From: Adenophora triphylla var. japonica
Taxonomy: Eukaryota; Streptophyta; Magnoliopsida; Asterales; Campanulaceae
Reading direction: 5' to 3'
NCBI GenBank assembly: GCA_022495995.1
Contig: JAFEMH010002090.1
Coordinates: forward strand, 248,001-312,000
Length of the DNA stretch: 64,000 nt
Shown: positions 4,058 through 62,037 of the stretch, in pieces
Layout: the number at the start of each line of letters is the position of its first letter
Position numbering within the stretch: position 1 is the first letter of the stretch
Program-made: the position numbers and the translations under genes
The notes under the pieces: generated by a model
The model's input: only the letters and a program-made list of their open reading frames with translations
The model's database searches: none
What the model was told of the DNA's origin: nothing

Positions 4058-4177
4058 CCTTCTTGCAAGGGAGGGCCAAATTACTTTCCTGCCCTTATAA
4101 TCTTTGCCCCTGGCTGTCCTAAGGCCTATTTCAGCAAATTCAGTGCAGTTTGGTCCTTAACCAATCAATTCAACCAC

Positions 4178-37029: not shown

Positions 37030-38355
37030 CTAAATTACCCGATCCTGCGCGCGGACTGGCATCTCGCATTTTCGAAAGTGTGTAGTTTTTGTAGAGTCGC
37101 CACGCCGTTTTGATTATGTCCAAAATATTGAGAAAAGAATTTGTTTGTTTTTGTTTTGTTGTGTGATGAGATTTTTGAGTTCGGATGTCAGGTTACACCT
37201 CGGGAAGAAATATTTGAGCTCACCCGAGTCACCTCGTATACACGAGTCTTTCGATACCCTTCTTTCTTTAAAAGTTTTGTGTGTGTGTGTGTGATTTTAA
37301 AAATGCATTTTGAAAATGATGTCTACATTGTAGACGATGTATTTACAAGAAATATTTAAATACTCAAAGCAATTAAATGAGATTTGGAAGAAGATCGTAC
37401 CAATGTTGGTTTGTGTCTATCATCCGCGTGGGAATGTTTTTGATTTGAGACGTCAGGGGTCGATCGGGACAGACCGGGTTGGATCGGGATTGCCTCGGGA
37501 TGGACCGGTGTGTGCCGGCAGAACTTCGGGATGCTTCGGGATGGACCAGTGTGTGTCGGCAGAGCTTTGGGATGCTTCGAGAGGGCCTCGGGATGGCTTG
37601 GGATGGACCGACAGAGCTTCGGGATGCCTCAGGATGCCTTGGGATGGACCGGCTGGGCTTCGGGATGCTTCGAAATGCCTCGGAATGGACCGGTAGAGCT
37701 TCAGGATGGCTCGGGAGCGCCTCGATAAGGCTCAGGAGCGCCTCGGGATGGCTCGGGAGGGACTGGTGTGTGCCGAACGAGCTTCGGGATGCTTTGGGAG
37801 GGCCTCGGGATGGCTCGGGATGGACCGACAGAGCTTCGGGATGCCTCGGGAGCGCCTCGGGATGGAACGACAGAGCTTCTGGATGTCTCGGGATGGACCA
37901 ATAGGGCTTCAGGATGGCTCTGGAGTGCCTCGGGATGGCCGGAAAAGTCCGGGAAGGATTAGAAGTGTGCCTGAAGGCTGGGGGGAGAGAGGAGAGAAGG
38001 GAGGTGTGAATGAAATGGGAGGGGGAGCCTTCTATTTATAGGCCTCAAAAAATTGCAAAGTGGTCCGTACGGACTCTTCTGTCATTACTGATTTTTTGGT
38101 TTTCCTGGATTTCAGGGAATATTGTGGACTTTTGGGAGATTTGGGGGATTTTTTGCGTGTTTGACAAAGTAGTCCGTACGGACCATCTTGCATTGCAAAG
38201 TGGTCCATACAGACATTATTCCAAGATAGTTCTCATTGAGAGCTTTCCAACCATATATGACACGTCTCAATCGGAGTCCGTATGAAGGAGTTATGACCTC
38301 CGGAAGTTCACCCTTGGTATTTTCTGTATGCTCAGATTGAGAAGGGGTACTTACA
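37030..38355 (-). repeat. Element B 3' LTR (left)
   Basis: 1326 bp. In element orientation it begins TGTAAGTACC, has boxes TCCGTACGGA at 38173-38182 and 38064-38073 plus a mutated copy (about 38203), then a TATA box (CTATAAATAGAAGG, about 38030-38043). It continues into repeats of about 40 bp rich in CGGGATG, and ends near 37030 with a mutated terminus (CT in place of TG when read on the + strand). Confidence 0.85.
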
Positions 38356-40330
38356 GAAGCCCCTTGGCGAAGTCACTTGTGAAGGAAGTGGGGTCGTCGA
38401 TAAAAATAAGAATCTCGATCTGGACTGCTCGTCGGGAGGGAAGAGATAAGTGACCAGGTTGGTCGGACGTTGGACCCTTTGATATGATTCCTACGTATCC
38501 CTGAGTGGGAATCAAGCCAATCGTAGTTCATGTGTGAGGGAAATTTTTGAGGGGGATCGACTGGTGGGGATCAAGCCAATCGTAGTTAATGTGTGACTAT
38601 TCCTTGAGGCGTCTAGACCTGAGTTGAGACTATTCCTTGAGGCGTCTGGACCTGAGTTGAGACGGTTCCTTGAGGCGTCTTGACCTGAGTGTAACTATTC
38701 GAAGGGGTCTACCTAAGATGGCTAATCTTACGAAACTATTTGGTAATCTTACGAAAAGACATGTAATCTACTAAAAGATTGCCATTCTTACGAAAAGGTA
38801 GGTAATCTTACTAAAAGATGGGTAATCTTACAAAAAGGTAGGTAATCTTACTACAAGGTACGTAATCTTACTAAAAGATAGGTAATCTTACTAAAAGATA
38901 GGTAATCTTACTAAAAGATATGTAATCCTACCAAAAGATATGTAATCTTACTAAAAGATGGTTTGTGGTGGCGTCTCTGAACTTGTTGAAATATTTGGGG
39001 ACTTAGTGGTGTCCTGAGATGAAATTGTGAGGACGTGGTGGTGTCCTGAGATGAAGTTGTGAGGACGTGGTGGTGTCCTGAGATGAAGTTGTGAGGATGT
39101 AGTGGTGTCCTGAGATGAAGTTGTGAGGAATTAGTGGTGTCCTGAGATGAAATTGTGAGGACGTGGTGGTGTCCCGAGATGAAATTGTGAGGATGTGGTG
39201 GTGTGCTAAAATGGTGAGGACGTGGTGGTGTCCTGAGATGAAGTTGTGAGGTCGTGGTGGTATCCTGAGATGAAATTGTGAGGACGTGGTGGTGTCCTGA
39301 GATGTGTGAGGACGTGGTGGTGTCCTGATATGAAATTGTGAGGACGTGGTGGTGTCCTGAGATGAAGTTGTGAGGACGTAATGGTGTCCTGAGATGAAAT
39401 TGTGAGGACGTTGTGGTGTCCTGAAATGAAGTTGTGAGGACGTAATGGTGTCCTGAGATGAAGTTGTGAGGACGTGGTGGTGTCCTGAGATGAAATTGTG
39501 TTGTGTAGGGACGGACTCTGTTTGTTGAAAACTTGTTGTGTAGGGACGGACCCCTTTTATGAAAATGTGTAGTGGAGGAGGTATTCGTCTTGAGTGAGAA
39601 TGTTCGAAGGCGTCTATACCTAAGTGAGATTTTTCAAAGGCGTCTATACCTATGTTGAGGCTTAGTTCAGGAGTATGAACCTAGGTTGAGGCTTAGTTTA
39701 GGAGTATGAACCTAGGTTGAGACTTAGTTCAGGAGTATGAACCTAAATTGAGACTTAGTTTAGTAGTATGACCCCAAGTTGAGACTTAGTTCAGGAGTAT
39801 GAACCTAAGTTGAGACTATTCTAAGGTGTCTGGACCTAAGGGAGACTATTCTAAGGCGTCTGGACCTAAGTTGTGTTTGATGGTGTATTTTGTGAATCAT
39901 GTAGGAACTTTGTTTGTGGGCATTTTCAGAAAGGAAACATGCCATGCTGGGACTCTTCTTTTATGTAGTGTTTATTACTGCTATGTCGTGCATTTGAAGT
40001 TTATTGACATACCTTTGTTGTGTTTACCTGCAGCAGGAGGTGCCTTTGTGAGGAGGAAGTTGAGGAGGACAGAGTGGCTCCTCTGGCTAAAATAATGAGG
40101 ACGTGGTGACGCCTCTGGCTGAGATAATAAGGACGTGGTGGCGCCTCTGACCGAGTTGTTGAAATGTTTGAGGACGTGGGGCACCTCTGACCGAATTGTT
40201 GAAATGTTAAGGACGTGGGGCGCCTCTGACCGAGTTGTTGAAATGTTTAGGACGTGGGGCGCCTCTGATCGAGTTGTTGAAATGTTTGAAGACGTGAGGC
40301 ACCTCTGATCGAGATAAGGAGGACGTGAAA
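38356..40330. repeat. Tandem arrays beside the 3' LTR of element B
   Basis: Successive arrays: about thirteen 20-bp units GGTAATCTTACTAAAAGATA (38700-38960); about fifteen 32-bp units with GAGGACGTGGTGGTGTCCTG (39000-39500); about 31-bp units with GACTTAGTTCAGGAGTATGA (39640-39820); and units with GACGTGGGGCGCCTCTGACC (40140-40330). A conserved block with GATTCCTACGTATCCCTGAG lies at about 38485. No gene. Confidence 0.75.
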
Positions 40331-40331
40331 G

Positions 40332-41880
40332 GTGCTGGCCAAGGAGAGGAGAGATGTCTCGTCTTCTTCTTCGTTCTTACTTCTGCAGACTTCTCGGAGT
40401 TATCTGGTCAAGGAAGGTACTGAGCTCACCGAGGATGATGACATGGCTGGCGGAGGCGCCGGGATACAGGAGTCTTACCAAGTGGTGGTGCCGATGACTC
40501 AGAGTAGGACTCTTTTTTTCTTTTCTGTGCATGTTAGTGAGGAGAACAACAAAATATTTGTATTTATATGCACAATGTGTTCATATGTAATGAACTCCTT
40601 TATTTGCACTTTATTGGTGATAACTTAGGAGTTATTTATACTTCTCTTTTTATTTTGTTCATGTCGCATGAGCTTGAAATGTTTGTGGTATATGGAGGCT
40701 GAGGCAGCTTTGGCAGGTTTTCTGACTAGTTTGGGGCTGAAACAACTTTGACAGTTTCATGCGCTACGGTGGGAGTGACGTCTCATGTGACGTGTTTGTT
40801 TTGTTCGTGATAGCCACTCTTTTCATGGTTAGCTCCCTCAGGATATGCCACAGCGCTTTGTTGGATGTGGTAAGCCACTGCCGAGCGGGCGAGGATTTCG
40901 TTCCTTTGGTTCTGGGGGAAACCTTCCACGGTGTAGACCGTCTGGCGATGGGGGACCGATTCATGCGCGGAGGAAGCCCCACTTTGCTTGCTTTATGGTT
41001 GCGAGAGAAACTTTAAGCTACGCTTGTGCTTCCGACATCTTTTAGTCCGTGGACATTTGCTCAGGGACCCTTGGGTCTTGGAGACGGGTCAGTCTGCTTG
41101 GGAGAGGTAGATGGCTCGACTTGGCACGTATAGCATCCGTTCGTGGGTTCCTCATTGGAAGATTGAGACTAGGAGGGCCTTTCAGGAAGGTTCCTATGTT
41201 GTCAGGGTTCCGGGGTTGTCTCAGTCTTCTTTCTACATCCCGTCCCTTGTTTCCAGACAATTTGGGATGAGGCAGGAGCCTTTGTTGGGCTTGAGTGACA
41301 TCGCCACCATGGAGGTAGCTTCTTTCTCTATGACAGATCCAGATGCTTTCCTTTTCTTTCTGAGGGCTTGGAAGCATTCTGCTTTTCCTCCTGTGGTACT
41401 CCTTAAACGATGGGAGAGTATTGTTATGTTCACCGAGTACCTGGATTGGTACAAGCGGCACCTTGGACAGACTCGAATGATTCTGGGGAGCAGGCGCGAG
41501 GCAATTCTGGGGAACAGACGCGAGGCGATTCTGGGGCAGGATTGCCGTTCCAGTTACGACCTTAGGAGCACGGAAGCTTGGTCTAACCCTCAGGGTGTCA
41601 CGAGTGACGCTTTGTTTGACTATGAGACTAGAGTTGATCGATTGACGGTGAGAGGTCCCCTTTTGCAGACTCGCATGGAAGGGATCCGAGCCGAGGCACG
41701 GACGAACGAGACTCTGAGAGCGACTGAATTGCTTCACTCAACGGGGAGGACTCCTGATCTCAGAATGAGGGAGATATAACTCGCTTATGTGGAACAAAAT
41801 AAGATTCGTTGGGGACGAGGGAAGAAAGGAAAGAGTGACGAAGGGACAAGCGCGAGTAGCATGGAATGACCTTCTAAAAC
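40332..41880 (+). pseudogene. Antisense PMD-like sequence of element B
   Basis: Runs opposite to the element's own strand. 40360-40510 is an acidic gene tail (TELTEDDDMAGGG) equivalent to 48270-48415 in element A. From about 40759 a second gene follows: LFVIATLFMVSS, PLVLGETFHGVDR and GGSPTLLALWLREKL, then after a frame change GSYVVRVPGLSQSSFYIPSL, SRQFGMRQEP and MTDPDAFLFFLRAWK (about 41190-41380), and a C-terminal segment to 41779. The SSFYIPSL..RQFG..Q block and the LLALWL segment are PMD-like by memory. A duplicated ILG(S/N)RREA stretch lies near 41490. Confidence 0.65.
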
Positions 41881-43265
41881 AATGAGTATCCATTCATTGT
41901 CATTGCAGACACATTAATTACTAGATGTCTTATGTTATCTTAGCATGTTGTGAGTCGAGAGTAGACCGTGCTTGAACTCATCAAGAAGTGTTTTAACTGT
42001 GATGATTTGTGGTTTACTTTTAAAGCTTTGTCGAGACGCAAAATCTCTTGCTTGCTTTTTGTCTGAGCCTTGATGGTATCCAATTTTTGGAGTTTTGTGT
42101 ATGCTTTAGACCGAACCAATGAAGGATGCCTACGTTCCCCTCGGACTGAGGGGCTCAGGTCTCCGTAGTTCGACCTTCTTTTTGTGAGAGAAGAGGAGAC
42201 AGAGAAGGGGGAGAATGGTGCAACCCTGATTTTTCCTAGACTGCCCTTTTAGGGTTTTCAATCTAGCTGGGTATGTTCTTCAACACATTTGTATATTTTT
42301 TTTAATCAATCAGTCAATCAAAAATGTGAAAGAAATGACTTGTAATGTACACTCATATGGGCATATATATTAATTTTTGAAAAGGTGGGAACTGGTCCCT
42401 TTTTGTATGAATGTCTTATTTGATGTAGGCACAAAAAACATGCTTTTGGGTTTGACTCTTTTGAGAGAGTATGAGCACTGAAAAGCTTGTAAAAGTGTAT
42501 GGAAGCCCTTGCTGACAGAAAATCAGTGTTTAGCTCTATTTTTCCTATTTTGTAGAAAAAGAAGACTTGTCGATACATCTGAAAACTTGATTTGCTCACA
42601 ATGATCACATGTTTGCTTAAAACCCTTTGTTGATTTGTTCAGGTTATTCAACAATTAAACTTGATGTGCTTGATTAATCATGAGGAGAAAGTCAACCGGC
42701 ATCAAGGATCGGGTTGGGTTAGAAGGCTTGGTATAGGAGAGGTCATTGGTGAGACCATGCTTGTGGATTTGTATGTGTTTATAACCGGACCATTTTTGGT
42801 TGCCTACGTTCTCCTTAAGACAAGGAGCTCAGGTCTCCGTGGTTCGGGGCCAAATCGTGTTTGGCTTTAGGGCAAGGTCATGAATATTTGTGTGACCTTT
42901 GGCGAGAAGGCTCGGACGGAAGGTCTGATAATGAGGCACGGGCCTCGAGGTGATTCCTTGACAAGTCGTATTTGACGGAGACTTCAACGATTCCATTTCT
43001 TTATTGTTTCTCTCATGGGAAGAGAAAGAATTTGAATATGGCTTAAGGACTTATGATACGCTTTTGCCTTTGCCTTCCTTCATTGAGCTTCTTACTAGCG
43101 GTGCTAGGTCCTTGGCTCCTTTTTTTTTTTTTTTTGAAGCCCCTGCTTGAACTTGCTTGATGCACATGAGGGGGAAGGAAAAGCCCCTAGCTTGTTGTTG
43201 ACATAAGAGCAATCATTTAATGATGTCGCTGCCGTCGTTGACTTGGTCAAGGTGATGGTAGGGAT
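41881..43265. other. Non-coding middle region of element B, conserved with A
   Basis: Aligns by eye with 50950-52290 of element A (for example CATGTTGTGAGTCGAGAG versus CATGTTGTGAATCGAGAG). It has no supported gene and contains a T tract at 43118-43135. Confidence 0.55.
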
Positions 43266-43472
43266 GTGATTTTGGAAAGTATATGTCTTGATGGAGGCCT
43301 TTGTGTGGGGTATGGTAAGGTGTATGGGGAGCTATCGGTTGACTTTCTCACACCAATTAATCAAAGCATTAATCCTTTGGGGAATTATTTGTTAAGCAAT
43401 GCAAGTGATCATATAGAGCAAAACCTTTTCATTAAATGTAATGTGGGGTGCAAAATAATGTCTCAAGTCTAG
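43266..43472 (+). other. Short conserved frame (about 68 codons) also in element A
   Basis: The + strand frame with DGGLCVGYGKVYGELSVDFL and CNVGCKIMSQV is retained in A at 52298-52498 (66 codons). It may be a real small product or simply low divergence. No family is recognised. Confidence 0.3.
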
Positions 43473-43989
43473 TAAGAAAAGAAAGAAAACTTGTGTATGG
43501 AAAATTGAAGACTTAATTACAATGTCCGAGGAGGACTTTATTGAATGAGAAAAGTACTAGAACCTACGAGGTTTGACTGTGTGATTTTTTGTGTTTTATT
43601 TTTCTGAGCGTAGAGGGGAGAAGAAGACACGATATTCTTTAGGAGAAGTATCGACGGAGAATTCTCCGATTTGCGTCTCTGCAGTCCCCAAATTCACTTT
43701 GGTCAAAACCTCCTCATCAACTTGGGCCCGATTTTCCTCTCGTTTGACAACATGCTTAAATATTTGCTTAATGTATTGTTCATTTAATGTGTCTGCATTT
43801 TTATCAAGTGAATCATTATTAACTGTTTTTGATTAGTTAATTTATCATATGTTAAAGTGGCAATGAGGGGATACTCAGAGATGTCGAATTTTTTTTTATT
43901 TAATGCAAAGGGGAATACAGTTTTTGCTATAAACGCATAATCTTCAGGCGTAAAGGCCGTCAAACGACTCGAGAGACTCAAACTAAACA
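43473..43989. other. Spacer between the small conserved frame and the gag end of element B
   Basis: About 520 bp that align by eye with 52499-53000 of element A. No supported gene on either strand. Confidence 0.45.
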
Positions 43990-44321: not shown

Positions 44322-44326
44322 ACACC

Positions 44327-45723
44327 TGAAATTACCCGGGATCCGGCTCGCGCGCGGAGCCCCGGCATCTCGCATTCGTCGCTTTTCGGGAAGGTCGCCC
44401 GGATCCGAGAGGCAGCGCAATCGCGCCCCGGCATCTGGCTTATTCCGTTTTAGCGTTGCGTGTTGGAGGAGGTGTCTCGCTGTGTTTTGCTTTGTAGAGT
44501 CGCCACGCCGTTTTTATTAGTAAGCCCAAAACATTGAAAAAGGGCATCAGTTTAAAAATAATAATAAACTGTTTTTGTGTGATGAGATTTTGAGTTCGGA
44601 GGTCAAGTTACTCCTCGGGAAGAGAATATTAGAATCTTAGAGCTCACCCGAGTCGCCTCGTAAAAACGAGTCTTTCGGTACCCCTTATATTCTTTAACTG
44701 TTGTGTGTGTGTGTGTGTGCTTTTAAAAATGCATGCTGTATCGGATGTCTACATTGTACACTGCTTTATTGAAATGTATTGAAATAGTGTAGGAAGGAAG
44801 CCTTACCAATGTTGGTTCGTGTCTGTCTTCCGCTGGGGAATAGTGCTTGAGGATGAAATAGTGCTCCGGGACGGACCGGGATTGCTTCGGAAGGAGCCGG
44901 TTGTCTGCGGACAGAACTTCGGCGTGCCTCGGGATTGTCAAGTGTGCACTCGGGCAGAGTTTCGGCGTGGGTTGGAATCGTCGGTTGGATTCGGGCAGAG
45001 GTTCGGCGTGCGTTGGAATCGTCGGTTGGATTCGGGCAGAGGTTCGGCGTGCGTTGGAATCGTCGGTTGGATTCGGGCAGAGGTTCGGCGTGATTTGGGA
45101 TCGCCGGTTTGACTCGGAAAGAGCCGGGACGCCTTGGAAAGACCAGGCAAGGCCTCGGAGTACCACGAGGGGCCTCGGAGTACCTCGAGAGTGCCTCAGG
45201 ACAGCGCGGGAGCGTCGCGGGAGCGCTCGGAGAGGCTTCGAAGCACCACAAGGGAGCTCGAAAGGCCTCGGAAGGATCCGAAAGGGGCCGGGATTGCCCC
45301 GAAGGGTCTTAGAGGGGAGCCTGAAGGCTGGGGGGAGAGGAGAGAAGAGGGAGGTGTGAAAAATGAGGGAGGGGGAGCCCTCTATTTATAGTGTAGGAAA
45401 AATGCAAAGAGGTCCGTACGGACCTCTTAGGTAATTATAGATTTCCGGGATTTGAGGGAATCTCGTGGACTTTAAGGGGATTTTCGTAATGATTATGTCT
45501 GGTGCAAAGAGGTCCGTACGGACCTTTTGGCATGCAAAGAGGTCCGTACGGACTTTCCATGCTCTTGTGAATGTGATGGCAAGCTAGCTCTCGTCGAGAG
45601 CTTTCCAACCATATATGGCACGTCTCAATCGGAGTTCGTATGAAGGAGTTATGACCTCCGGAAGTTTGCCTCTGGTTTTGTCGTATGCTGGGATGGAGAG
45701 CGATCCAGATTGGGGTACTTACA
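44327..45723 (-). repeat. Element A 3' LTR (left)
   Basis: 1397 bp. In element orientation: boxes at 45543-45552, 45513-45522 and 45413-45422, TATA box CTATAAATAGAGGG (about 45384-45397), four 41-bp units (about 44950-45090), an (AC)n tract (44703-44720), and an end with GGTAATTTCA. It has about 60 bp near 44340-44400 that the right LTR lacks. Confidence 0.88.
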
Positions 45724-45830
45724 GAAGCCCCTCGGCGACGTCACTTATGAAAGAAGTGGGGTCGTCGATAAGATAAGGGTCCTGATCTGGATCGCGTGCT
45801 GAGAGAGAAGGTGACCGTGTAGGTCAGTGC
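45724..45830 (-). other. Polypurine tract and adjacent unique sequence of element A
   Basis: Reads CCGAGGGGCTTC up to the LTR start TGTAAGTACC on the minus strand, the same tract as in element C at 6219-6229. Confidence 0.65.
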
Positions 45831-47700
45831 GTGAGGACATGGCGGTGTCCTGTTGTGTGACCGTTTAGGTCAGTTGGCTGGACCCTGTGATAGGATTCCT
45901 ACGTATCCCTAGCGGGAATCAAGCCTGATCGTAGTTCGTGTGTGGGGTGAGTGTTGTGTACGAGGACGTGAGCTGTCCTCTAACTGAGACTCTGTGTGTG
46001 GATGTGATGGTATCCTGTGGGTGACCGCATAGGTTGGTGGTAAGGACGTGGAGGCGTCCAGGGTGACGTGGAGGCGTCCAGGGTGACCGCATAGGTCGGT
46101 GGTAAGGACGTGGAGGCGTCCTGGGTGACCGCATAGGTCGGTGGTAAGGACGTGGAGGCGTCCTGGGTGACGTGGAGGCATCCAGGGTGACCGCATAGGT
46201 CGGTGGTAAGGACGTGGAGGCGTCCTAGGTGACCGCATAGGTCGGTGGTAAGGACGTGGTGGCATCCTGGGTGACCGCATAGGTCGGTGGTAAGGATGTG
46301 GAGGCGTCCTGGGTGACGTGGAGGCGTCCAGGGTGACCGCATAGGTCGGTGGTAAGGACGTGGAGGCGTCCTGGGTGACGTGGAGGCGTCCAGGGTGACC
46401 GCATAGGTCGGTGATAAGGACGTGGAGGAATCCTGGGTGACCGTATAGGTCGATGGCTAGACCCTGTGACAGGATTCCTACGTATCCCTAGCGGGAATCA
46501 AGCCTGGTCGTAGTTCAGAGGTGGTGAATTTGTGAGTGTATGTGGGCGTGGTGGTGCCCTGAAGTGTCGTATGACTGCCAAGGTCAGTGGTAAGGACGGG
46601 GTGGTGTCCTAAGATGTGGTGACCGCTGAGGTCAATTGTGAGGACGTGGTGGTGTCCTGGGATGGAAATTTTACGATTTTCCTAATCGGGTGGTTTAAGG
46701 CCTTCCGGGCCGGGGATAATGATTTGGGAGGTTTATACGGTCTTCCGGACCGAGTGATTTAAAGCCTTCCGGGCTGGGGATTGTAGTTTGGCTGATTTAT
46801 ACGATCTCCGGTGAGTGGTTTAAAGCCTTAGAGTGGAGGTAGTAGTTTGGGCGATTTATACGATCTCCGGGGAGTGGTTTAAAGCCTTAGGGCTGGAGGT
46901 AGTAGTTTGGCTGATTTATACGGTCTCCGGACCGAGTGGTTTAAAGCCTTCCTGGCTGGAGGTAGTAGTTTGGGTGATTTATACGATCTCCGGACGAGTG
47001 GTTTAAAGCCTTTGGAGGTAGTGATGATACTTGAATCGTCTTCGAATGTGGTTGCGCCATGCGTGAGGACTTTGAATCGTCTTACGCGGCGGTTGGTGCC
47101 ACGCAGGAGGACTTTGAATCGTCTTACGGCGGCGGTTGGTGCCACCGGCCGGAGGACTTTGAATCGTCTTACGGCGGCGGTTGGTGCCACGCGTGAGGAC
47201 TTTGAATCGTCTTACGGCGGCGGTTGGTGCCACGCTTGGGAGGACTTTGAATCGTCTTGCGGCGGTTGGTGCCACGCGCAGAGGACTTTGAATCGTCTTA
47301 CGGCGGCGATTGGTGCCACGCGGGAGGACTTTGAATCGTCTTACGGCGGTTGGTGCCACGCGGGAGGACTTTGAATCGTCTTACGGCGGCGGTGGTGGAG
47401 GCATGGGCGCCTTGAGATGTGAGAAGTGCGATTGGCTCACGCTTTGTCTGTTGGGGAAAAGGGTGGATTTATGATGACTTTGCCGGTGTTCATCCGTTGG
47501 GGTCATTGGGGCCTTGTAGGGGCTCTTCTGGCGAGAAAGGTGACGTCGGGCTTACTTTGATGGCGGTGCTTGCGTTGTCGTTGAGCGTTTTGGAGGCGTT
47601 TTGTGCCTTGAGATTTGTCTTTGGGAGGTGTTGGCTCCTTCTTGTGCTTGTTTTGCCGTTGAGTGGGCAAGGATGATGGCCGGTCTTTGAGGATATGCGG
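45831..47700. repeat. Tandem arrays beside the 3' LTR of element A
   Basis: 46020-46440: 42-bp units with GACCGCATAGGTCGGTGGTA mixed with 20-bp units GACGTGGAGGCGTCCAGGGT. 46680-47020: about 60-bp units with GTGGTTTAAAGCCTT. 47030-47400: about 41-bp units with GAGGACTTTGAATCGTCTTA, the complement of the array in C at 5100-5580. A GATTCCTACGTATCCCTAGC block occurs twice (45893 and 46470). The 47400-47700 end holds G-rich sequence related to 4790-5100 of element C. Confidence 0.8.
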
Positions 47701-48240
47701 TCTTGTACGACTTTCCTTTGACTTGTTGGGGAGGAGCTCGGGCTTACTTTGATGGGCGATGTTTGAATTGCGAGGATGCGTGACCTTGTAGGGGCTTTTC
47801 TGTTGGGAAAGTGTCTTTGGACCTTTCTTTGTGTTTACTGCGGGGAGGAGGTGCTTGTGACCGAAGTCGCGGAAATGCGAGGACGCGCCGACGTTTATTT
47901 TTGAACAAAGTTCTTTGAAATGATGAGGACGCTATGGCGCCTTTGTGCGAACTTGCGGTGAGGGCGAGGTAGCGCCTTTGTTTGAACTTGTTGTGAGGAC
48001 GGGTGGTGCCTGCATGCAGAACTTACGGTGAGGGTGAGGTGGCACCTGTCTGGACTTATGGTGAGGGCGAGGTGGTGCCTGCTGTCGAACTTGCGGTGAG
48101 GACGTGGTGGTGCCTCTGTCCGAACTTGCGGTGAGGGCGCGGTAGCGCCTCTGCATGCAGGCTTGTTGAAATGTTTGAGGCCGTGGGGCGCCTGCGGCCG
48201 AGTTGTTGAGGTGTTGAGGACGTGGTACGCCTCGGAGTCT
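47701..48240. repeat. Degenerate GAGG(A/G)CG-GTGGTGCCT repeats of element A
   Basis: Loose units with CGAACTTGCGGTGAGG and CGCCTTTGTTTG. No gene seen. Confidence 0.5.
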
Positions 48241-48249
48241 TTGGACAAG

Positions 48250-48415
48250 GAGAGGAGGGATGGCTCGTCTTCTCTTTCCTTCTTCGTTCTTACTCCTACG
48301 GACTTCTTAGACTATCCGATCGAGGAAGGTGCTGGGTTCACAGAGGATGATGAGGTGGCTGGCGGAGGCCCCGAGCTGCAGGAGTCTTTACCAGGCGGTG
48401 GTGCGATGACTTAGA
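48250..48415 (+). pseudogene. Antisense gene tail in element A
   Basis: Acidic end segment with GFTEDDEVAGGGPELQES and a stop after AMT. It matches 40360-40510 in element B. The body of this gene is not recognisable upstream. Confidence 0.45.
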
Positions 48416-48439
48416 GTAGGACTCCCCCTTTTACATTAC

Positions 48440-52297: not shown

Positions 52298-52498
52298 TTG
52301 GAAAGTGTATGGCTTGATGGAGGCCTTTGTGTGGGGTATGGTAAGGTGTATGGGGAGCTATCGATTGACTTTCTCACACCAATTAATCAAAGAATTAATC
52401 ATTTGTGGAATTACTTGTTGAGCAATGCAAGTGATCACATAGAACAAAACCATTTCATTAAATGTAATGTGGGGTGCAAAATAATGTCTCAAGTCTAG
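52298..52498 (+). other. Short conserved frame (66 codons), counterpart of 43266-43472
   Basis: Keeps DGGLCVGYGKVYGELSIDFL and KCNVGCKIMSQV and the same stop. No family recognised. Confidence 0.3.
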
Positions 52499-52603
52499 CA
52501 AGAAACGAAAGAAGACTTATGTATGGAAAATTGAAGACTTAATTACAATGTCAGGAGGACTTGATTGAATGAAAACGATTACTAGAACCTACGAGGTGGG
52601 TTT

Positions 52604-52637
<34 letters not shown>

Positions 52638-53289
52638 GATTTGCGTCTCTTTGGGCTCTCCAGCAGTTCCCAAATTCATTTTGGTTAGAACCTTCTCGGC
52701 AGCTTGGGCCAGATTTTCCTCTCGTTTGACAACATGCTTAAAGATTTGTTTAATGCATTGTTCATTAATGTATCTGCGTCTTTATCAAGTGAATCATTAT
52801 TAACTGTTTTGGTTAGTTAATTTATCATTTGTTAAAGTGGCAATGAGGATACTCGAAAGGTCGATCTTTTATTCGAAGCATAAGGAAGCGCGATTTTTGT
52901 TACAAACGCATAATCTTCAGGCGTAAGGCCGTCAGACGACTCGAGAGACTCAAACTTAAATACGACAGACTCGGGGTCTTTTATTTTCAAAGCTAGACTC
53001 TAGGAGATTGGGGTTAAATTAAGCTTCCGGACCATTTCCTCTTTCTTTGTTTGTGGGTCCGCGTTTTTGAAAGGTTACGCCGTTTTCTGTTGCTACTTGG
53101 TCGGCTGTCTCGAAGCGCCTTATCTACAGGGAAGGCTCGATCCATCCCTTAGTGTGCCCCGATCTTTGGAAAGGATTGTTGGGGAATAACCATTCTTGGG
53201 TTTTCTTTCTGAATTTTCGTTGCGGAAGCCCCATGTATTGCCTTCACGTCCACACGATCATCACGAGAATTTGCCGAGGACTTATCCAC
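52499..53289. other. Spacer with a T tract between the small frame and gag in element A
   Basis: A T run at 52608-52637 and sequence equivalent to 43500-43990 of B. The part from about 53000 to 53290 has no close match in B by eye. Confidence 0.45.
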
Positions 53290-55540
53290 CATGCTTACCC
53301 CGTCATTTCTAGGGAAAGGGTTTCCATTGTGTTGGGACCGCGGGGCATTCCCACTTTCCCTCTTCGATCAAGCCTTGGACCGCTTGTTTTAGTGTGATGC
53401 AATTGTCTGTAGTGTGGCCGGGGTAGTTGTGAAAAGCACACCATTTGCTCATGTCCATGTTAGGTGCGAGAGTCCTTGGTGGAAATTTTCGAGAGGTTTG
53501 AGGATGTTCGGCTTCACCAACGTCTCGAACACTTGGCTTAGAGGCATTCGAGGTTGTCGAAGTGAATGAAAGGTTGCTTCCCAAAAGAGTTGTCACTTCG
53601 TTGGGTGTGTTCCCCTTGTTCACCTCATTGTTCCGAGGGAGCAGTTTCCGTCTGTATTGGGGCCGTCGGGGCGTTCTAACGTTCCTTCTTCAATTAGCCC
53701 TTGGACCGCTTGTTTTAGTATGATGCAATTGTCGGTGGTGTGGCCGGGGTAGTTATGAAAAGCACACCGCTTGCTCATATCCAAGTTCGGGTTAGGAGTC
53801 CTCGGTTGATAATTCTCGAGGGCTTGAGCATGTTACGCTTCTTGACTCCTCGAATACTTGGCTTAGAGGCATTAGAGGTTGTCGAAGTGTTGAAGCACGC
53901 TGCCGTTTATTCCTCGGGAGTGCTTGGTCACGGCTTCTTTGGATTTCATTACGAATGTAGTGGAATGCCTCGGTAGCCCTTTTTCCTTTGTTTGGGGCGA
54001 GATGCCGAGGTAGGCGGGGCTGCCTTGCGGCGGTAGGAAGAAGCGGGAGCGGCTACCATTTCTGCGTGCTCAAAGCTTTTTCAAACTTGGTACCGGCATT
54101 CACCATAGCGTGAAGATCGGGATAGGGGTGGTGGGCGATCAATGTCCTCAACGATGGTTTGAGGCGGGAGTGGAAAGATGTTCATTTGTTCTTCCTTGGA
54201 TAGGAGGTCCACTATCTCGCTTAACTTCCAATTCCATCTTTTGTAAAATTCCTCCACCGAGCTCATCATCTTTTTGCTCGGTGGCGGCGGGTCATGCGAT
54301 TTGTTTTCCACTTGAGGTTAGCACGGTATTTTTCAAGGAAGATATCACTTATTTGCTCCCAGTGGAGCGGTTTTACGCTTTTACTTTAAGAAACCATGTC
54401 AAGGCCGTGTATTTTAGAGAGCGTTGAAAGTGATGCGCCATTTGTTGAGGTGTGGCCCCCTTGGTCTTCATACCTAAGACATAGGTATTGATATGGGTCC
54501 TCGGGCATTACGTCCCATCGAACTTTTCCATTTCCGGCATTTTGAACTTTGGGGGAGAGGAATTACCTTGCTCGGATACGTGGGCGTGAGTGGGTCTTTC
54601 AGAGAGTTGGCCATTTTCCCTTGCATATCTTTTATACATTCAACCAACCAAGCCACATGAGGGTCGGTAGGCGGAGCGGGAGCCATTTTCCGGGATGGAA
54701 GCCGAGGATGGAGGTGGATTGGCTAATGAGATCGCCATTCGGGAATCTTGGGGAGGTAGTTGAGTGTATACCATCCCGTACCACAGGTTGCGAAATTGGA
54801 GCCAAGGGCGTGATTGCCGGACCGCCAAGGGTTGTGTTTGGGAAGCTGAGGGAAATGTTTCGGTAGCCCCAAGTGGCGATCCGGCCCGGGTGGAAAGGTT
54901 TGAGATGTCGGGATATCCGCGGGGGATGTCTGTCCACTGGCGAGGCATTGAGATTTCAAATTGTAGGCTGCGAGGCTCGTATAGAGGCAAAGGATTGAAT
55001 CACTGGGGATGTCGAGATGCATTAGGATCGACGGAGCGAGCACGTATGTGTCTTTGTTGAGTGCGAAGCTTGATGTGCGAGCCGGGAGGCCCAGCTGTCT
55101 TGGCGGAGCATGTCGGGCTAGCTTGGCCCAGCGCTGAGGAGCTTTGAGCGGGGCTGCTGCGTTCTTTGGGATCTCGTAGCTTGGCGGAGGCGGAACTTGC
55201 TTGATAGCTTTGAGAAATCGGGGAGCCGGTATGTCTTCGTCCTTTATGAGAACAAAGGTTCCGTCGGGTTGGGAAGCTGCCACGGCTCCGCGGCGCGCAT
55301 AGTGTCTACGATCCGGGCTTGCTTTGCTCTTCTGGCGCTTCTTGAGAGTTTCGAAGGCTCGTAGCACCTCCTCCATTGTGCAGAGGTTTCTCGGTGGTGG
55401 GGTTCCGTTTCCCTCAACATTGTTATCTGATCCTTGGCCATGGGGAGTAGCGGAGCTGACATTCGGACCGGCTGAGCAGGAAGAGGCTATCGGACCTTGT
55501 GACCTTGATGCGAAAAGGCGGCTCCCGTGTACTCTCAACC
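53290..55540 (-). pseudogene. Element A gag (frameshifted, knuckle segment duplicated)
   Basis: Begins near 55538. An N-terminal segment with MEEVLRAFETLKKRQK and QPDGTFVLIKDED leads into a Pro-rich middle. From about 54660 come VAWLVECIKDMQGKMANSLK and then EFYKRWNWKLSEIVDLLSKEEQ (split here by frame noise, 54270-54180), which fit the Ogre/Tat gag capsid region. The C-terminal knuckle-like motif CAFHNYPGHTTDNC with a following LIEEGK occurs at about 53460-53350 and again, damaged, at about 53770-53690. Gag forms the particle; no protease or RT follows. Frame breaks are more frequent than in the B copy. Confidence 0.72.
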
Positions 55541-56714
55541 ACTCTCGGTTATTTGGAGGGTGACGGGTAAGGTTTAGACATGGGAAGGCCTTTTGGATAA
55601 AAGGGAAAGCTCGTGTGACATGCAGTTTCCGCCTTTTATTAATGATTTTTTTGTTGTTTTAATTTACTTAAAACAATGTTTTCTCTGAATCCTAGGTAGG
55701 TTGGAAAAGATTGCTCTTCTTTTTCGCAACTATGCTAGATCTGGGTCGATGGAGACCATACGTGCGGCTATAAGCCCCTCGTTTTGCACACTGTATTTCG
55801 ACATCCCGGGGTGGACGGCCCGGGCGAGGTCATGGGGCAAGCGGTTTCCACCGGCCTAAAAGAAAAATCGAACCTAAGGACCGAGCTGTCATGTTCGTTT
55901 TGATGCGTTAGCCATGTGAATAGTGAACCGAGCACACTTGAGTCAAGATCGGAGTCAAGAGTTCGGCATGACCTCTCTTTACCTTGCTTGCGCAAGGGAT
56001 GCGTGACATTAGGCTTTGGGTGGGTCATATTGTCATGGGCGACGTATCAAAGGCGTGATGACATGGTGTCATGTGAGCATGGATGTATATCAGGGACGGA
56101 ACATCGTGCAGGTGTAGCTTCGGAAATCAAGATCGGGTCAAGATTTTAGCATGACCTTTCATCGCCTTGCTTGCGCAAGGATCTTGAATTCCGAGCCTTG
56201 ACTCAGAAAAATGGCCGGCATGGTATATGTATCCGAGGTTGTATGACCTGATTTGGGTAAAAACCAACCGAGTGCGGGCCGAGTGTGACTCAAGACTCAA
56301 ACGTGCGGGGTTGACGCTTGGCTAGGATGGGATGTTTGGAATGATCCCGTGCGCATCAGAGAGGCCTAGGAAGACCAAGCACGGTTGCAAGCGAGACCAC
56401 TCCGGGTTAAGGGTTGTAGCGTGCGGTGTAGCAAAGCGGCAGTGTGAGTAGGGTGCGGTGTAGCACCGAGCGGCGATGCGCGTAGTGTGCGGTCTCTAAA
56501 ATTCTTTTACGAGTAAAAACGAAGTTTTGAAGAATTTTAAATGTATGCGCGAGATGTATATTGATGCATTTTTTTGTATTTTTTTTTGAAAAATAAAAAG
56601 AAGCACGTGCACACACACACAACAGTTAAAGGAAGGGGTAAAATGAAAGTTTGACCCTCATCATCGTTTTAAAAATCTTTTGTTTTGTTTAAAAGTTTTT
56701 TTTAAAACAAAATG
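55541..56714 (-). other. Untranslated leader of element A
   Basis: Between the primer site and gag. It aligns with 59880-60960 of element B. It holds repeated TTGCTTGCGCAAG, CAAGATCGG and GACATGGTGTCATG motifs and a T tract. No gene seen. Confidence 0.55.
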
Positions 56715-56732
56715 TCCCCAGCGGAGTCGCCA
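56715..56732 (-). other. Primer-binding site of element A (tRNA-Arg type)
   Basis: Read on the minus strand: TGGCGACTCCGCTGGGGA, two bases inside the 5' LTR end. It matches the 3' end expected of plant tRNA-Arg(ACG) with about one mismatch, from memory. It fixes the minus orientation. Confidence 0.78.
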
Positions 56733-56734
56733 AC

Positions 56735-58103
56735 TGAAATTACCCGGATCCGAGAGGCAGCGCATTCGCGCCCCGGCATCTGGCTTATTCCGTTTTAGCG
56801 TTGCGTGTTGGAGGAGGTGTCTCGCTGTGTTTTGCTTTGTAGAGTCGCCACGCCGTTTTTATTAGTAAGCCCCAGAAACATTGAAAAAAGGGCATCGGTT
56901 TAAAAATAATAATAAACTGTTTTTGTGTGATGAGATTTTGAGTTCGGAGGTCAAGTTACTCCTCGGGAAGAGAATATTAAAATCTTAGAGCTCACCCGAG
57001 TCGCCTCGTAAAAACGAGTCTTTAGGTACCCCTTATATTCTTTAAGCATTGTGTGTGTGTGTGTGTGCTTTTAAAAATGCATCTTTGTATCGGATGTCTA
57101 CATTGTACCTGTGCTTTATTGAAATGTATTGAAAGAGTGTAGGAAGGAAGCCTTACAAATGTTGGTTCGTAATGCATCTTCCGGCGGGAATAGTGCTTGA
57201 GATGAAATAGTGCTCCGGGACGGACGGGATTGCTTCGGAAGGAGCCGGTTGTCTACGGACGAGCCGGCGTGCCTCGGGATTGTCGAGTGTGCGCTCGGGC
57301 GGGGTTTCGGCGTGGGTTGGAATCGTCGGTTGGATTCGGGCGAGAGGTTCGGCGTGCGTTGGAATCGTCGGTTGGATTCGGGCGAGAGGTTCGGCGTGCG
57401 TTGGAATCGTCGGTTGGATTCGGGCAAAGGTTCGGCGTGCGTTGGAATCGTCGGTTGGATTCGGGCGAGAGGTTCGGCGTGATTTGGGATCGCCGGTTTG
57501 ACTCGGAAAGAGCGGAACGCCTTAGGAAAGACCGGGCAAGGCCTCGGAGTACCACGAGGGCCTCGAGTACCTCGAGAGTGCCTCGGGGCAGCGCGGGAGC
57601 GTCGCGGGAGCGCTCGGAGAGGCCGGAGCACCACAAGGAGCTCGGAAGGCCTCGGAAGGATCGAAAGGGGCCGAGATTGCCCAGAAGGGTCTTAGAGGAG
57701 CTGAAGAGGCTGGGGAGAGGAGAGAAGAGGGAGGTGTGAAAAATGAGGGAGGGGGAGCCCTCTATTTATAGTGTAGGAAAAATGCAAAGAGGTCCGTACG
57801 GACCTCTTAGGTAATTATAGATTTCCGGGATTTGAGGGAATCTCGTGGACTTTAAGGGGATTTTCGTAATGATTATGTCTGCTGCAAAGAGGTCCGTACG
57901 GACCTTTTGGCATGCAAAGAGGTCCGTACGGACTTTCCATGCTCTTGTGAATGTGATGGCAAGCTAGCTCTCGTCGAGAGCTTTCCAACCATATATGGCA
58001 CTTCTCAATCGGAGTTCGTATGAAGGAGTTATGACCTCCGGAAGTTTGCCTCTGGTTTTGTCGTATGCTGGGATGGAGAGCGATCCAGATTGGGGTACTT
58101 ACA
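56735..58103 (-). repeat. Element A 5' LTR (right)
   Basis: 1369 bp. Boxes TCCGTACGGA at 57923-57932, 57893-57902 and 57793-57802 lie upstream of the TATA box (about 57763-57776). It has 41-bp units (57310-57480, about five copies, one more than the left LTR). It lacks about 60 bp between two CCCGG-GATCC repeats near its 3' end, and differs from the left LTR at many CAG/CTG sites. Confidence 0.88.
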
Positions 58104-58108
58104 ACACC

Positions 58109-59860
58109 GTTTGCTCATGTCCAAGTTGGGATTGAGAGTCTTTGGCTAGAAATTTTCAAGCTGTTTGAGGATGTTCCGTTTTACCAATGCTTCAAATACT
58201 TGGCTCAGGAGCATCTCGAGGTTATCAAAGTGCTGAAAACGCTGCCGTTTATTCCTCGGGGGTGCTTGGTCACGGATTCTCTAAATTTCATTCTGAATGT
58301 AGTGGAATGCCTCGGTAGTCCTTTTTCCCTTGTTTGGGGCAGATGCCAGATTAGGCGGGACTGCCTTGCAGTGGTAGGAAGAAGCAGGACTGGCTACTGT
58401 TTCCTGCGTGCTCAAAGCTTTTTCAAACTTGGTACCGGCGTTGACCATAGTGCGAAGATCAGGATAGGGGTGGTTGCTGATCAATGTCCTCAATGATGGT
58501 TTGAGGCAGGAGTGGAAGATGTCCATCCGTTCTTCCTTGGATAGGAGGACCACTATCTCGCTTAACTTCATATTCCATCTTTTGTAAAATTCCCTCACCG
58601 GCTCATCATCTTTCTGCTCAGTGACCTGCAGGTCATGCCGGTTTGTTTCCCACTTGAGGTTAGCATGGTATTTCTCCGGGAAGATGTCACTTATTTGCTC
58701 CTAGGTGGAGCGGTTTTCTGCTTTTACTTTAAGAAACCACCTCAAGGCTGTGTATTTTAGGGAGCGTTGGAAGTGATCTGCCATTTGTTGTGGAGTAGCA
58801 CCTTTGGTCCTCATACCTAATACATAGGTATTGATATGGGTCCTCGAGCATTCCGTCCCATCAAACTTTTCCATTTCTGGCATCCTGAACTTCATGGGGA
58901 GAGGAACCACCTTACTTGGATCCGTGGGCGTGAGCGAGTCTCTCCGAGAGTTGGCCATTTTCCCTTGCATCTCCTTCATTTGTTCGACAAACCAAGCCAT
59001 ATGAGGGTCACTAGGCAGAGGCAGACTGCCATTTTCTGGGATAGAAATCTAAGGCGGAGGTGGATTGGTTGACGGGATTTCCATTCGGGAATCTTGGGTA
59101 GGCAACTGAGTGTATACCAATCCGTATCCTGGATTACTGAAATTGGAGCCGGGAGCGTGATTGCTTGGACCACCATAGGTTGTGTTTGGGAGCTAAGCAA
59201 ATATCTCATTAGCCCCAAGAGGTAGTCTGGCGGGTGGCAGATTCAAAATGTCTGGGTATCCGCTCGGTATGTCTGTCCCTGGCAGGCATTGGGATTTCAA
59301 GTTGTGGCCGCGAGGCTCGTATAGAGGCAATGGATTGAATCCCGGGGGATATTGAGAGACATTGGGATCTGGGGGAGCGGGCCCATAGGTGTGCTGGTGA
59401 TATTGAGTTTGCGGAGAGGAGCCGAAGCGGTGTCTTTGGGGTTAGCGGTCGGAGGCTGCTTGGCCCGAGGCTCAAATGGAGCTTTGAGCGGGAGATAATT
59501 TGCATGGCTGAATTTTCATAGCTTTGTGAAGGAGGAACCTGCTGATAGCTTTGGGAAACCGGGGGAGTAGGCATGTCTTCGCCTTCTAAGAGGATGAAGG
59601 TCCCATCGGTTTGGGGAACCGCAACAGCCCCGCTACGGCGCATGGTGTCTACAATCCAAGCTTGCTGCTCTTTATGGTGCTTCTTAAGGATTTTAAAGGC
59701 TTGCAGCACCTCCTCCATTGTCTGGAGATTCTTAGAGGCGGAGTACCATTTCCCTCACTATTATCTGTCGACCCTGCCATGGGAGAGTAACAGACTTTTT
59801 GGACCGCTGAACCGGAAGGGATGTCGGACATTATGACCTCGATACTAAAAAGATGGCACT
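58109..59860 (-). pseudogene. Element B gag, N-terminal and capsid part
   Basis: Starts near 59830 with an ATG in MSDIPSGSAVQK. A frame change near 59730 leads to MEEVLQAFKILKKHHKEQQ, TDGTFILLEGEDMPTPP and a Pro/Ser-rich region. The capsid-like block follows at 59000-58280: VEQMKEMQGKMANSRRDS, MPEMEKFDGTECSRTHINTY, QQMADHFQRSLKYTALRWF, a stop near 58700, then REFYKRWNMKLSEIVVLLSK and HPYPDLRTMVNAGTKFEKAL. The FDGTE..T and W-x-L style fits Ogre/Tat gag. It is broken by element A at 58108. Confidence 0.78.
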
Positions 59861-60964
59861 CGGGCACACTCAACCACTCTCAGTTCGCTGGAGGGGTGAA
59901 AGGTAGGGTTTAGACTCAGAAGGGCTTTTTGGATGGAGGAGGAAAACTCATGCAACATGCAGTTTCACTTTTTTTTTATTAATTTACTTAAAACATGTTT
60001 TGTCAGAATCCTATATGGGTTGGAAAAGATTTCTCTTATTTTTTGCCACTATTCTAGATTCTGGGTCAGTGGAAACCATCACTACGGCTATAAGCCCCTC
60101 GTTTTGCACCTGTATTTCGACTTCCCAGGGTGGACAGCCCCGGGCCAGGGTCCTATAGGGTAAGCGGTTTCCACCGACCAAAAGAAAAACGAACCTAAGG
60201 ACCGAGCTTGTCATGTTCATTTTAATGCGTCTGCCATGTGAATAGTGAACGGAGCCAGTACCTAAATCAAGATCGAGTCAAGAGTTTGGCATGACCTCTC
60301 TTTTTCTTGCTTGCACAAGGGATCTATGACTTTAGGTTTTTTGCTAGGTCGTATTGTCATGGATGACGCATTAAAGGCTTGATGACATGGTGCCATGTGG
60401 GCATGGACGTATATCCGGTACGGATCATTGTCTGAGTGTAGCTTTAGAAATCAAGATCGGGTCAAGATTTTAGCATGACCTTTCATTGTCTTGCTTGCGC
60501 AAGAGATCTTGATTTCTGGGCTTTTGACTCAGACAATGGCTGACATGGGATATGTATCTAGGCTTTATGACATGGACTAGGTCAAAAATCAATCGAGTCT
60601 GGATAGAGTGTGACACAAAAGTGCATGGTTGACACTGGCTAGGATGTAAAGTTTGGAATGATCCCATGCGCGCTCGAGAGGCATAGAAATAGCAATCGAA
60701 CTGCATCTGAGACCATCCCGAGTTTGGGGTTGTAGTGTGCAGTGTACAGGATAAGAGTGCGCGTAGTGTGCGGTCACTATAATTCTTTTTTTGAGTAAAA
60801 CAAAAATTTTTGCAGAATGTATTTTAAAGTATGTACACAGATAATGCATTTTTTTGTATTTTTTTTTTGAAAAAGTGAAAACAATAAAACACATACACAC
60901 ACAACAGTTAAAGAAAGGGTAAAATGAAAGTTTGACCCTCATCATTGTTTTAAAAATCTTTTTA
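59861..60964 (-). other. Untranslated leader of element B
   Basis: Aligns with the element A leader. The primer site is absent because a deletion joins the leader (about 60964) directly to the interior of the LTR. Confidence 0.6.
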
Positions 60965-62037
60965 AAAGTTTTGAAAATGATGTCTACATTGTAGACGGTG
61001 TATTTAAAAGAAATATTTAAATACTGAAAGCAATTAAATGAAATTTGGATGGAGATCGAACCAATGTTGGTTTGTGTCTATCTTCCGCGGGGGAATATAC
61101 TTGATTTGAGACATCAGGGGTAGATCGGGACGGACATGGATGGACCGGGATTGCCTCGGGATGGACCGGTGTGTGCCGACAGAGCTTCAGGATGCTTCGG
61201 GATGGACCAGTGTGTGCCAACAGAGCTTCGGGATGCTTCGAGAGCGCCTCGGATGGCTCAGGATGGACCGACAGAGCTTCGGGATGCCACGAGATGTCTC
61301 AGGATGGACCGGCAAGGCTTTGGGATGCTTCAGAATGCCTCGGGATGGACCGACAGAGCTTTGGGATGGCTCAGGACCGCCTCGGGAAGGCTCAGGAGCG
61401 CCTCAGGATGGCTCAAGAGGGACCGGTGTGTGCCAACAGAGCTTTGGGATGCTTTGGGAGCGCCTCAGGATGGCTCAGGATGGACCGACAGAGCTTCGGG
61501 ATGCCTCAGGAGCGCCTCGAGATGGACCAGTAGAGCTTTAGGATGACCCGGGATGGACCGACAGGTCTTCGAGATGGCTCGGGAGTGCTTTGGGATGGCT
61601 CGAGATCACCTCGGGATGGCTCGGGAGCGCCTCGAGAAGGTCGGAAGAGGCCGAAAAGGCTTAGAAGTGTGCCTGAAGGCTGGGGGGAGAGAGGAGAGAA
61701 GGGAGGTGTGAATGTAATGAGAGGGGGAGCCTTCTATTTATATGCCTCAAAAAATTGCAAAGTGGTCCATACGGACTCTTCTGTCATTACTAATTTTTTA
61801 GTTTTCCTGAATTTCAGGAAATATTGTGGACTTTTGGAAGATTTGGGGGATTTTTTGCGTGTTTGACAAAGTGGTCCATACGGATATCATTGCAAGCTAG
61901 TTCTCGTCGAGAGTTTTCCAACCATATATGACACATCTCAATCGGAGCCTGTATGAAGGAGTTATGATCTCCGAAAGTTCGCCCTTTGTATTTTTCGTAT
62001 GCTCGAATGGAGAGCGGTCTGGATTGGGGTACTTACA
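60965..62037 (-). repeat. Element B 5' LTR (right), truncated at its 3' end
   Basis: About 1073 bp. It ends TACTTACA at 62037, has only mutated box copies (TCCATACGGA near 61765 and 61880) and a TATA-like CATATAAATAGAAGG (about 61730-61744). Repeats of about 40 bp rich in CGGGATG lie at 61140-61620. About 260 bp of LTR plus the primer site are missing relative to the left LTR. Confidence 0.8.

What the first reader, a model, noticed from the sequence alone, without database searches (positions are those of the whole stretch)
37030..62037. Family of pol-less LTR elements pairing a gag with antisense PMD genes
Elements A and B have LTRs, TSDs and a gag but no visible pol. C has no visible pol in the 6.2 kb of interior present. 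All carry PMD-like genes on the opposite strand between gag and the 3' LTR. Two antisense genes per element are seen in A and C. Keeping both a gag and an antisense nuclear-type protein while dispensing with replication enzymes suggests these two products matter for the parasite: particle formation in sense, and possibly a silencing-related or nuclear function in antisense. PMD proteins of the host (MAIN/MAIL1) act in transposon silencing, so a TE-borne PMD could be an interfering copy. That last step is inference.
Basis: partly seen in the sequence, partly recalled or inferred. Interest (0 to 1): 0.8.

Follow-up and report, generated by a model that had tools for sequence, protein, structure and literature searches.

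The report
Split gag/pol retroelement family, antisense genes
This plant genome holds a repeated jumping-gene family in which some examined copies carry the shell-protein gene without copying enzymes and others seem to carry enzymes without the shell gene, and the copies examined also bear an extra gene on the opposite strand that selection appears to have preserved.

Summary
The elements are real, but "pol-less family" is only part of the story. A (37030-62037) and B (44327-58103, nested in A) have LTRs, 5-bp TSDs and gag, and no detected pol. Six further same-LTR interiors from this 2.48-Gb genome look alike: RT, RNase H or integrase in 0 of 6, antisense gene 2 in 6 of 6. C is not pol-less: beyond the window edge it has gag, a protease-like stretch and integrase, but no detected RT; 30 further genomic places repeat that RT-less stretch (their gag unread). 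A third type shares LTR, primer site, leader and antisense gene 2 and carries protease-RT-RNase H-integrase (one copy read, L047/L048); no gag core was detected in 3 of 3 copies read there.
PMD is firm for gene 1 of C (E 7.8e-8), only suggestive for gene 2, and unseen by Pfam in A and B. Codon tests favour constraint on gag and, less cleanly, on antisense gene 2.
Best reading: an Ogre/Tat-like Ty3/gypsy family with gag and pol on partner types, complementing in trans (inferred). Its separate parts are already known. Interference with MAIN/MAIL1 is untested.

The parts
37030..62037 (-). Element A, interrupted by B; TSD ATGGG at 37025-37029 and 62038-62042
37030..38355 (-). 3' LTR of A
60969..62037 (-). 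5' LTR of A, truncated at its 3' end; primer site lost; LTR pair K2P 0.122
58284..59440 (-). gag of A (with stops); sense frame constrained against B (92 nonsynonymous codons, 124.7 expected, 0 of 2000 permutations)
41111..41776 (+). Antisense gene 2 of A, 222-aa open exon; weak match to the PMD C-terminal motif
40741..41013 (+). Upstream open piece of antisense gene 2 of A; no codon constraint seen in 40741-41110
44327..58103 (-). Element B nested in A; TSD ACACC at 44322-44326 and 58104-58108
44327..45723 (-). 3' LTR of B; query of the genome search (40 candidates scored of 9493 in the first look)
56735..58103 (-). 5' LTR of B; LTR pair K2P 0.057
56715..56732 (-). Primer binding site of B; the same 18 bases in C (L038) and in the pol-bearing L047
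53309..55658 (-). gag region of B with a duplicated zinc-knuckle-like stretch (53286-53442, 53645-53768)
49953..50948 (+). Antisense gene 2 of B, 332-aa open frame
48518..49482 (+). Tail of antisense gene 1 of B, homologous to the tail in C (window 968-2297)
1..7707 (+). 3' half of element C: interior 1-6229, 3' LTR 6230-7707; TSD ATACC on both sides; 5' half in L037 and L038
2260..2889 (-). Antisense gene 1 of C, PMD exons; 2260-2538 hits PF10536
968..2297 (-). Downstream exons (tail) of antisense gene 1 of C
1..312 (-). N-terminal part of antisense gene 2 of C (read by eye); continues in L037 8000-6911
41800..43600 (+). Stretch shared by A and B at low divergence, largely without match in C, which has integrase in the corresponding place

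Best explanation
A, B and C belong to one multi-copy Ty3/gypsy family of the Ogre/Tat kind whose ancestor probably carried gag, protease, RT, RNase H and integrase in sense and two PMD-related genes in antisense before the 3' LTR. The family has split into types: gag without pol (A, B and six more), gag-protease-integrase without RT (C; 30 other places share the RT-less stretch), and protease-RT-RNase H-integrase without a gag core (read through pol in one copy, gag place read in three). Where read, they share LTR ends, primer site, leader and antisense gene 2. Most likely they replicate by complementation: Gag from one type packages RNA of the others through the shared leader, and enzymes come from the pol type. 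The antisense protein is a maintained accessory factor, probably nuclear and acting on transcription or silencing of the family. Shown: layouts, shared LTR/PBS/leader, repeated layouts, codon constraint. Inferred: ancestor, trans-complementation, accessory function.
For: LTR/TSD/PBS anatomy. No pol in A and B by Pfam or tblastn, and in 0 of 6 fetched interiors (6 of the 8 same-contig LTR pairs). C gag (PF03732 3.2e-6) and integrase; 31 of 40 scored places (C included) collinear with the RT-less C stretch. L047: LTR 90-91% to C's, same PBS, leader 92%, RT by tblastn E 1.3e-19, G-patch, RT_RNaseH and RVT_3 over cut-off, protease under it; integrase 94% to C's follows; antisense gene 2 downstream (L048). 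Gag profile: finds an unrelated Tat element (E 4.5e-16) and D weakly (0.031), nothing better than E 1.2 in L047/L049/L050. Gag constrained in 6 of 6 pairs with A, antisense gene 2 in A's frame in 8 of 8.
Against: LTR, PBS, RT and antisense gene 2 of the pol type rest on one copy; gag absence on 3 of the 9 places that broke at the integrase, from 40 scored of 8045 candidates picked for likeness to C. Gag-pol copies may exist. Gag was not read in the 30 other C-like places. A, B and C carry stops or frameshifts; intactness of other copies was not assessed. The pol-type LTR is near C's (K2P 0.09) but far from B's (0.28), so it is a poorer helper candidate for B-type copies. The selection test is somewhat liberal: a stop-rich stretch (41800-43000) gave p 0.005 in two of six frames. 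Upstream gene 2 (40741-41110) shows no constraint; the full C ORF gives p 0.47 against A and 0.02 against B. Pairs share ancestry. L049 has one 23-residue match to the gag end (E 0.004). No transcript, protein or mobility was tested.
Confidence: 0.55

Rival explanations
1. Ordinary non-autonomous (TR-GAG-like and deleted) derivatives of an Ogre/Tat element that also exists in intact gag-pol form; complementation runs one way from the intact form.
For: TR-GAG elements and deleted Retand clusters are known in plants (PMC5818461, PMC8704663 passages; PMC11963269 parts 1-3 of 5). Only 40 candidates were scored per DNA search, out of 9493 and 8045.
Against: Layouts recur collinearly (31 of 40; L047, L049, L050 over 2.8 kb at the gag place; 6 of 6 interiors), which fits amplified types better than scattered decay.
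Confidence: 0.3
2. The antisense genes are non-functional passengers; their open frames reflect base composition or once-captured PMD sequence, and what matters, if anything, is antisense RNA.
For: The PMD exon of C was found whole in 0 of 6 other interiors, as fragments of 15 and 21 residues in 2; gene 1 was not found in A or L043; some frame tests are null and a non-coding control gave p 0.005.
Against: Open frames beat a Markov null in A, B and C. In 8 of 8 comparisons with A the constrained frame is A's open one; the other two frames on that strand are not, save L042 f2 (p 0.015).
Confidence: 0.25
3. The TE-borne PMD protein is a decoy or interfering copy of host MAIN/MAIL1 and blocks silencing.
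For: MAIN and MAIL1 act in TE silencing (PMC5418596, PMC7156037; passages read); PMC5418596 speculates about anti-silencing for MULE-borne PMDs.
Against: No direct evidence here; gene 2 resembles PMD only weakly (E 0.0022, 0.05 to 0.47; 0.19 to 3). Gypsy PMDs form their own clades in that paper.
Confidence: 0.1

Closest known systems
Ogre lineage (OTA/Tat, Ty3/gypsy)
   Same: PBS of the Ogre tRNA-Arg type (type from PMC9289625 passage; matching these letters to tRNA-Arg is recalled), second RNase H between RH and IN in L047; PMD reported in 57% of Ogre elements (PMC6317226, passages read); tandem repeats in the interior.
   Different: In the copies read, gag and full pol lie on different types; two antisense genes before the 3' LTR; no RT tree was made.
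Retand elements with antisense ORFs (PMC11963269, parts 1-3 of 5 read)
   Same: Antisense ORFs and tandem repeats between the sense genes and the 3' LTR; 10 of 63 clusters lack a typical domain.
   Different: Retand antisense ORFs carry TRP28 (PF04195) in nearly all clusters; none of 122 antisense ORFs here hit it.
TR-GAG elements (PMC5818461, PMC8704663, passages read)
   Same: LTRs plus gag without pol; one shown to move in Arabidopsis ddm1 (PMC8704663).
   Different: Here antisense genes are kept with gag, and the pol-bearing relatives read lack a detectable gag core.
Gag-less elements BARE-2 and Tos17 (PMC3977881, passages; BARE-2 title seen in its reference list)
   Same: LTR elements without gag that need a partner.
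   Different: Copia elements (Tos17 per that paper; BARE-2 recalled); here the gag-bearing type is itself pol-less.
PMD genes such as MAIN/MAIL1 (PMC5418596, PMC7156037, passages read)
   Same: Gene 1 of C matches a profile of 16 PMD sequences, 15 of them from this genome (genic or TE-borne not determined; E 5.6e-8).
   Different: TE-borne, repeated, antisense; clade not tested.

Membership tests
Ogre/Tat lineage | PBS complementary to tRNA-Arg | tested here: inconclusive
   TGGCGACTCCGCTGGGGA in B, C and L047; identity as tRNA-Arg is recalled
Ogre/Tat lineage | additional RNase H (aRH) between RH and integrase | tested here: met
   one copy: L047 RT_RNaseH in 7069-7581, RVT_3 in 7410-7997, integrase from contig 48987
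Ogre/Tat lineage | RT phylogeny within the lineage | not tested
   no tree built
Ogre/Tat lineage | PMD-bearing extra ORF (57% of Ogre) | tested here: met
   C exon 2260-2538 minus, E 7.8e-8, slightly under Pfam cut-off
Retand | antisense TRP28 (PF04195) ORF | tested here: not met
   0 of 122 antisense ORFs of 45 aa or more from A, B and C-in-window at E 0.05 or less
TR-GAG | LTRs, gag, no pol | tested here: met
   A, B; 0 of 6 interiors with RT/RH/IN, gag partial in 2 of the 6; not met by C
PMD family (gene 1) | PF10536 match | tested here: met
   one exon, bits under the curated cut-off; E1 and E2 fall in order on the own-genome profile (9-60, 106-172)
PMD family (gene 2) | PF10536 match | tested here: not met
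   0 of 6 gene-2 pieces; weak C-terminal match to the own-genome profile, E 0.19 A, 0.28 L043, 1.2 C, 3 L045, 0.01 L048

The most novel reading that the evidence does not exclude
A bipartite retrotransposon: gag-only and pol-only types with shared ends are mutually dependent, neither being autonomous, and both keep a selected antisense PMD-related protein as a common accessory factor.
Probability: 0.3. Interest if true: 0.8.

Novelty: new variant of a known kind. Interest (0 to 1): 0.6.

Why it matters
Non-autonomous LTR elements are usually seen as parasites of one intact helper. A family whose copies split gag and pol, each repeated, would be a clean case of division of labour among transposons. 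Constraint on an antisense PMD-related gene in pol-less copies would make the unknown role of these widespread antisense genes testable: selection would have kept them after pol was lost.

Tried and rejected
Public protein search found one PMD fragment for gene 1 (P0001), nothing for gag and one 61% relative of gene 2 (P0002). C1837 looked like a partner with LTR and RT, but its RT belongs to a nested different Tat element with the same primer site. The 30 PMD loci L001-L030 show no DNA match to this family. Rfam and tRNA scans of the window were empty. NCBIfam gave nothing for 4 pieces. Full-ORF tests of C against A and B for gene 2 were null or weak; gene-1 tail C against B gave p 0.0025 and 0.0075 in two frames. 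A census of gag in pol-bearing copies (query L047:2900-7900) did not complete. No structure job was run. Element ages are given only as LTR divergence; no rate was assumed. TSDs were checked for A, B and C only.
Full report
Anatomy. Self-comparison and terminus searches give A at 37030-62037 (minus orientation, TSD ATGGG), B at 44327-58103 nested in A (minus, TSD ACACC, primer site 56715-56732), and C reading on the plus strand with its 3' LTR at 6230-7707. A's 5' LTR lacks its last part and the primer site. LTR pair divergence (K2P) is 0.122 for A, 0.057 for B and 0.036 for C.

C is longer than the window. The window lies at contig C2090:248001-312000 of an unnamed 2.48-Gb assembly. The 18 kb before it (L037, L038) hold C's 5' LTR, the same primer site, and TSD ATACC matching the right flank. 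C there carries gag (PF03732 E 3.2e-6), a zinc-knuckle and protease-like stretch (read by eye; no Pfam hit), and integrase (tblastn to the integrase of element D, E 3e-34; PF00665 only E 0.012). No RT or RNase H was found.

Is A/B pol-less? Pfam on 150 of 180 sense ORFs of A, B and C-in-window gave no pol family at E 0.05 or less (of the 30 left out about 20 were C ORFs, the rest from repeat stretches of A and B). As a control, element D in the same window shows RVT_1, RNase H, RVT_3 and integrase at once. No gag family was hit in A or B either, so sensitivity is limited. tblastn (E up to 1) with D's RT, RNase H and integrase and with C's protease-region and integrase pieces found nothing of pol in A and B; only the gag-end zinc stretch at the start of C's protease-region ORF matched. 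A and B share the layout, including a stretch near 41.8-43.6 kb largely without match in C, so the simplest view is descent from a pol-lacking ancestor.

Other copies. B's LTR gave 9493 first-look candidates, 40 scored. Eight contigs other than the window's hold two of these LTRs in one orientation; I fetched six of the interiors (two cut at 10 kb). All six carry gag or part of it (four long; L043 and L046 partial), antisense gene 2 in 6 of 6, the antisense gene 1 tail in 5 of 6 (not L043), and RT/RH/IN in 0 of 6 at E 1e-3 or less. C's PMD exon was found whole in none of them and as 15- and 21-residue fragments in L044 and L046.

Partner types. A DNA search with C's gag-end to integrase stretch (L037:3030-5850) scored 40 of 8045 candidates, chosen for likeness to it: 31 (C included) match end to end, so the RT-less stretch is repeated (gag upstream of the other 30 was not read); 9 match only from the integrase side. 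One of the nine, C4340 (L047), has an LTR 90-91% identical to C's, the same primer site, a 92% leader, RT and RNase H by tblastn, and G-patch, RT_RNaseH and RVT_3 over the Pfam cut-offs, with protease under it. Two more (L049, L050) are collinear with it at 91% over the 2.8 kb from leader to protease, where gag would be; their LTR, RT and 3' parts were not fetched. A gag profile from eight copies (C and L041 among them, so their hits are no test) finds an unrelated Tat element (E 4.5e-16) and D (0.031) but nothing better than E 1.2 in L047, L049 or L050; tblastn with C's gag gave E 0.2 in L047 and one 23-residue match in L049 (E 0.004). Downstream of its integrase the C4340 element carries antisense gene 2 (L048, E 1.7e-38). 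A PMD core also lies in L048 on the pol strand (E 1.5e-14) in a stretch that does not align to C; I cannot tell whether it belongs to the element.

Are the antisense genes PMD? Gene 1 of C: yes, by PF10536 (E 7.8e-8, under the curated cut-off) and by a profile of 15 PMD sequences of this genome plus P0001 (E 5.6e-8). Gene 2: no Pfam hit in 6 pieces. In a scan of 2061 ORFs of both strands, 12 matched that profile at E 5 or less; the six best were all antisense: two exons of C gene 1 (1.2e-7, 0.0056) and four of gene 2 (A, L043, C, L045) reaching the profile's C-terminal part (E 0.19 to 3). L048 adds E 0.01; hhalign gave E 0.0022 for A's exon and 0.05 to 0.47 for others. I take gene 2 as probably PMD-related and much diverged; no single match proves it.

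Selection. Permutation tests that keep base and CpG classes, A against B: gag 92 nonsynonymous codons, 124.7 expected, 0 of 2000; antisense exon 75, 89.5 expected, p 0.0005, the other plus frames null, one minus frame p 0.0035. Controls in the same call: the mirror frame of gag also looks constrained; the stop-rich stretch 41800-43000 gave p 0.005 in two of six frames; the upstream piece of gene 2 (40741-41110) was null in all six. With A as reference, antisense gene 2 is constrained in A's frame in 8 of 8 copies (ratio 0.74-0.91; 0 of 400 in seven, p 0.022 in L041) and gag in 6 of 6 (0.54-0.79). With C as reference, C's own frame (f2 there) reaches p 0.007 or less in 4 of 7. The full C ORF gave p 0.47 against A and 0.02 against B, with another frame at 0.01. 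Codon-position counts alone were significant for gag parts only. The pairs share history and the test is somewhat liberal, so this is support, not proof.

Literature. PMD occurs in 57% of Ogre elements (PMC6317226, passages); it is the commonest extra domain in the gypsy consensuses of PMC9289625 (passages); Gypsy-borne PMDs form clades A1/A2 (PMC5418596, passages). Antisense ORFs before the 3' LTR are general in recently active Retand elements (PMC11963269, parts 1-3 of 5) and reviewed in PMC7264820 (passages). A TR-GAG element moved in Arabidopsis (PMC8704663, passages). Gag-less Tos17 needs a partner (PMC3977881, passages). The searches listed no paper on a family split into gag-only and pol-only partners with antisense PMD genes; the library holds open-licence papers only, and I judged mainly by the listings.

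Mechanism. Shared LTR ends, primer site and leader, where read, mean that the types could be transcribed, primed and packaged alike. The simplest working model is complementation in trans. Which way help flows, and whether any autonomous copy is left, is open. The antisense protein is most likely an accessory factor; nuclear action is inferred from PMD biology and from the nuclear Grande antisense protein reported in PMC7264820.

Noticed in passing
window 8429-18149: Tat-type element D (gag, RVT_1, RNase H, RVT_3, integrase) with 98.1% identical LTRs and antisense ORFs (15946-16431, 16761-17312 minus) without a Pfam family over cut-off, lying at the LTR edge of a copia element (LTRs 7708-8429 and 24173-24894).
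   Followed up: partly
window 43270-43526 and 52296-52552: 257-bp block 94% identical between A and B, inside a stretch whose divergence is near the minimum set by their LTR ages; no clear coding signal, no Rfam hit. Recent recombination or a conserved control region.
   Followed up: partly
L048 3435-4179: PMD core on the same strand as pol downstream of the pol-bearing element's antisense gene 2; belongs to the element or to a nested one.
   Followed up: no
L047 4308-5642: G-patch domain (PF01585 E 2.5e-5) behind the protease of the pol-bearing type.
   Followed up: no
L034 4078-6294 (C1837): A different Tat-type element with the same primer site and a gag about 29% identical, nested in a B-like copy.
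   Followed up: partly
window 34074-34739: Metallophosphatase fragment (PF00149 E 2.1e-12), probably host; also a KIB1-4 beta-propeller-like fragment at 30775-31134, below cut-off.
   Followed up: no
window 6258-6514: About 257 bp in C's LTR without match in B's LTR; the 5' LTR of C and the LTR of L047 align through it.
   Followed up: no
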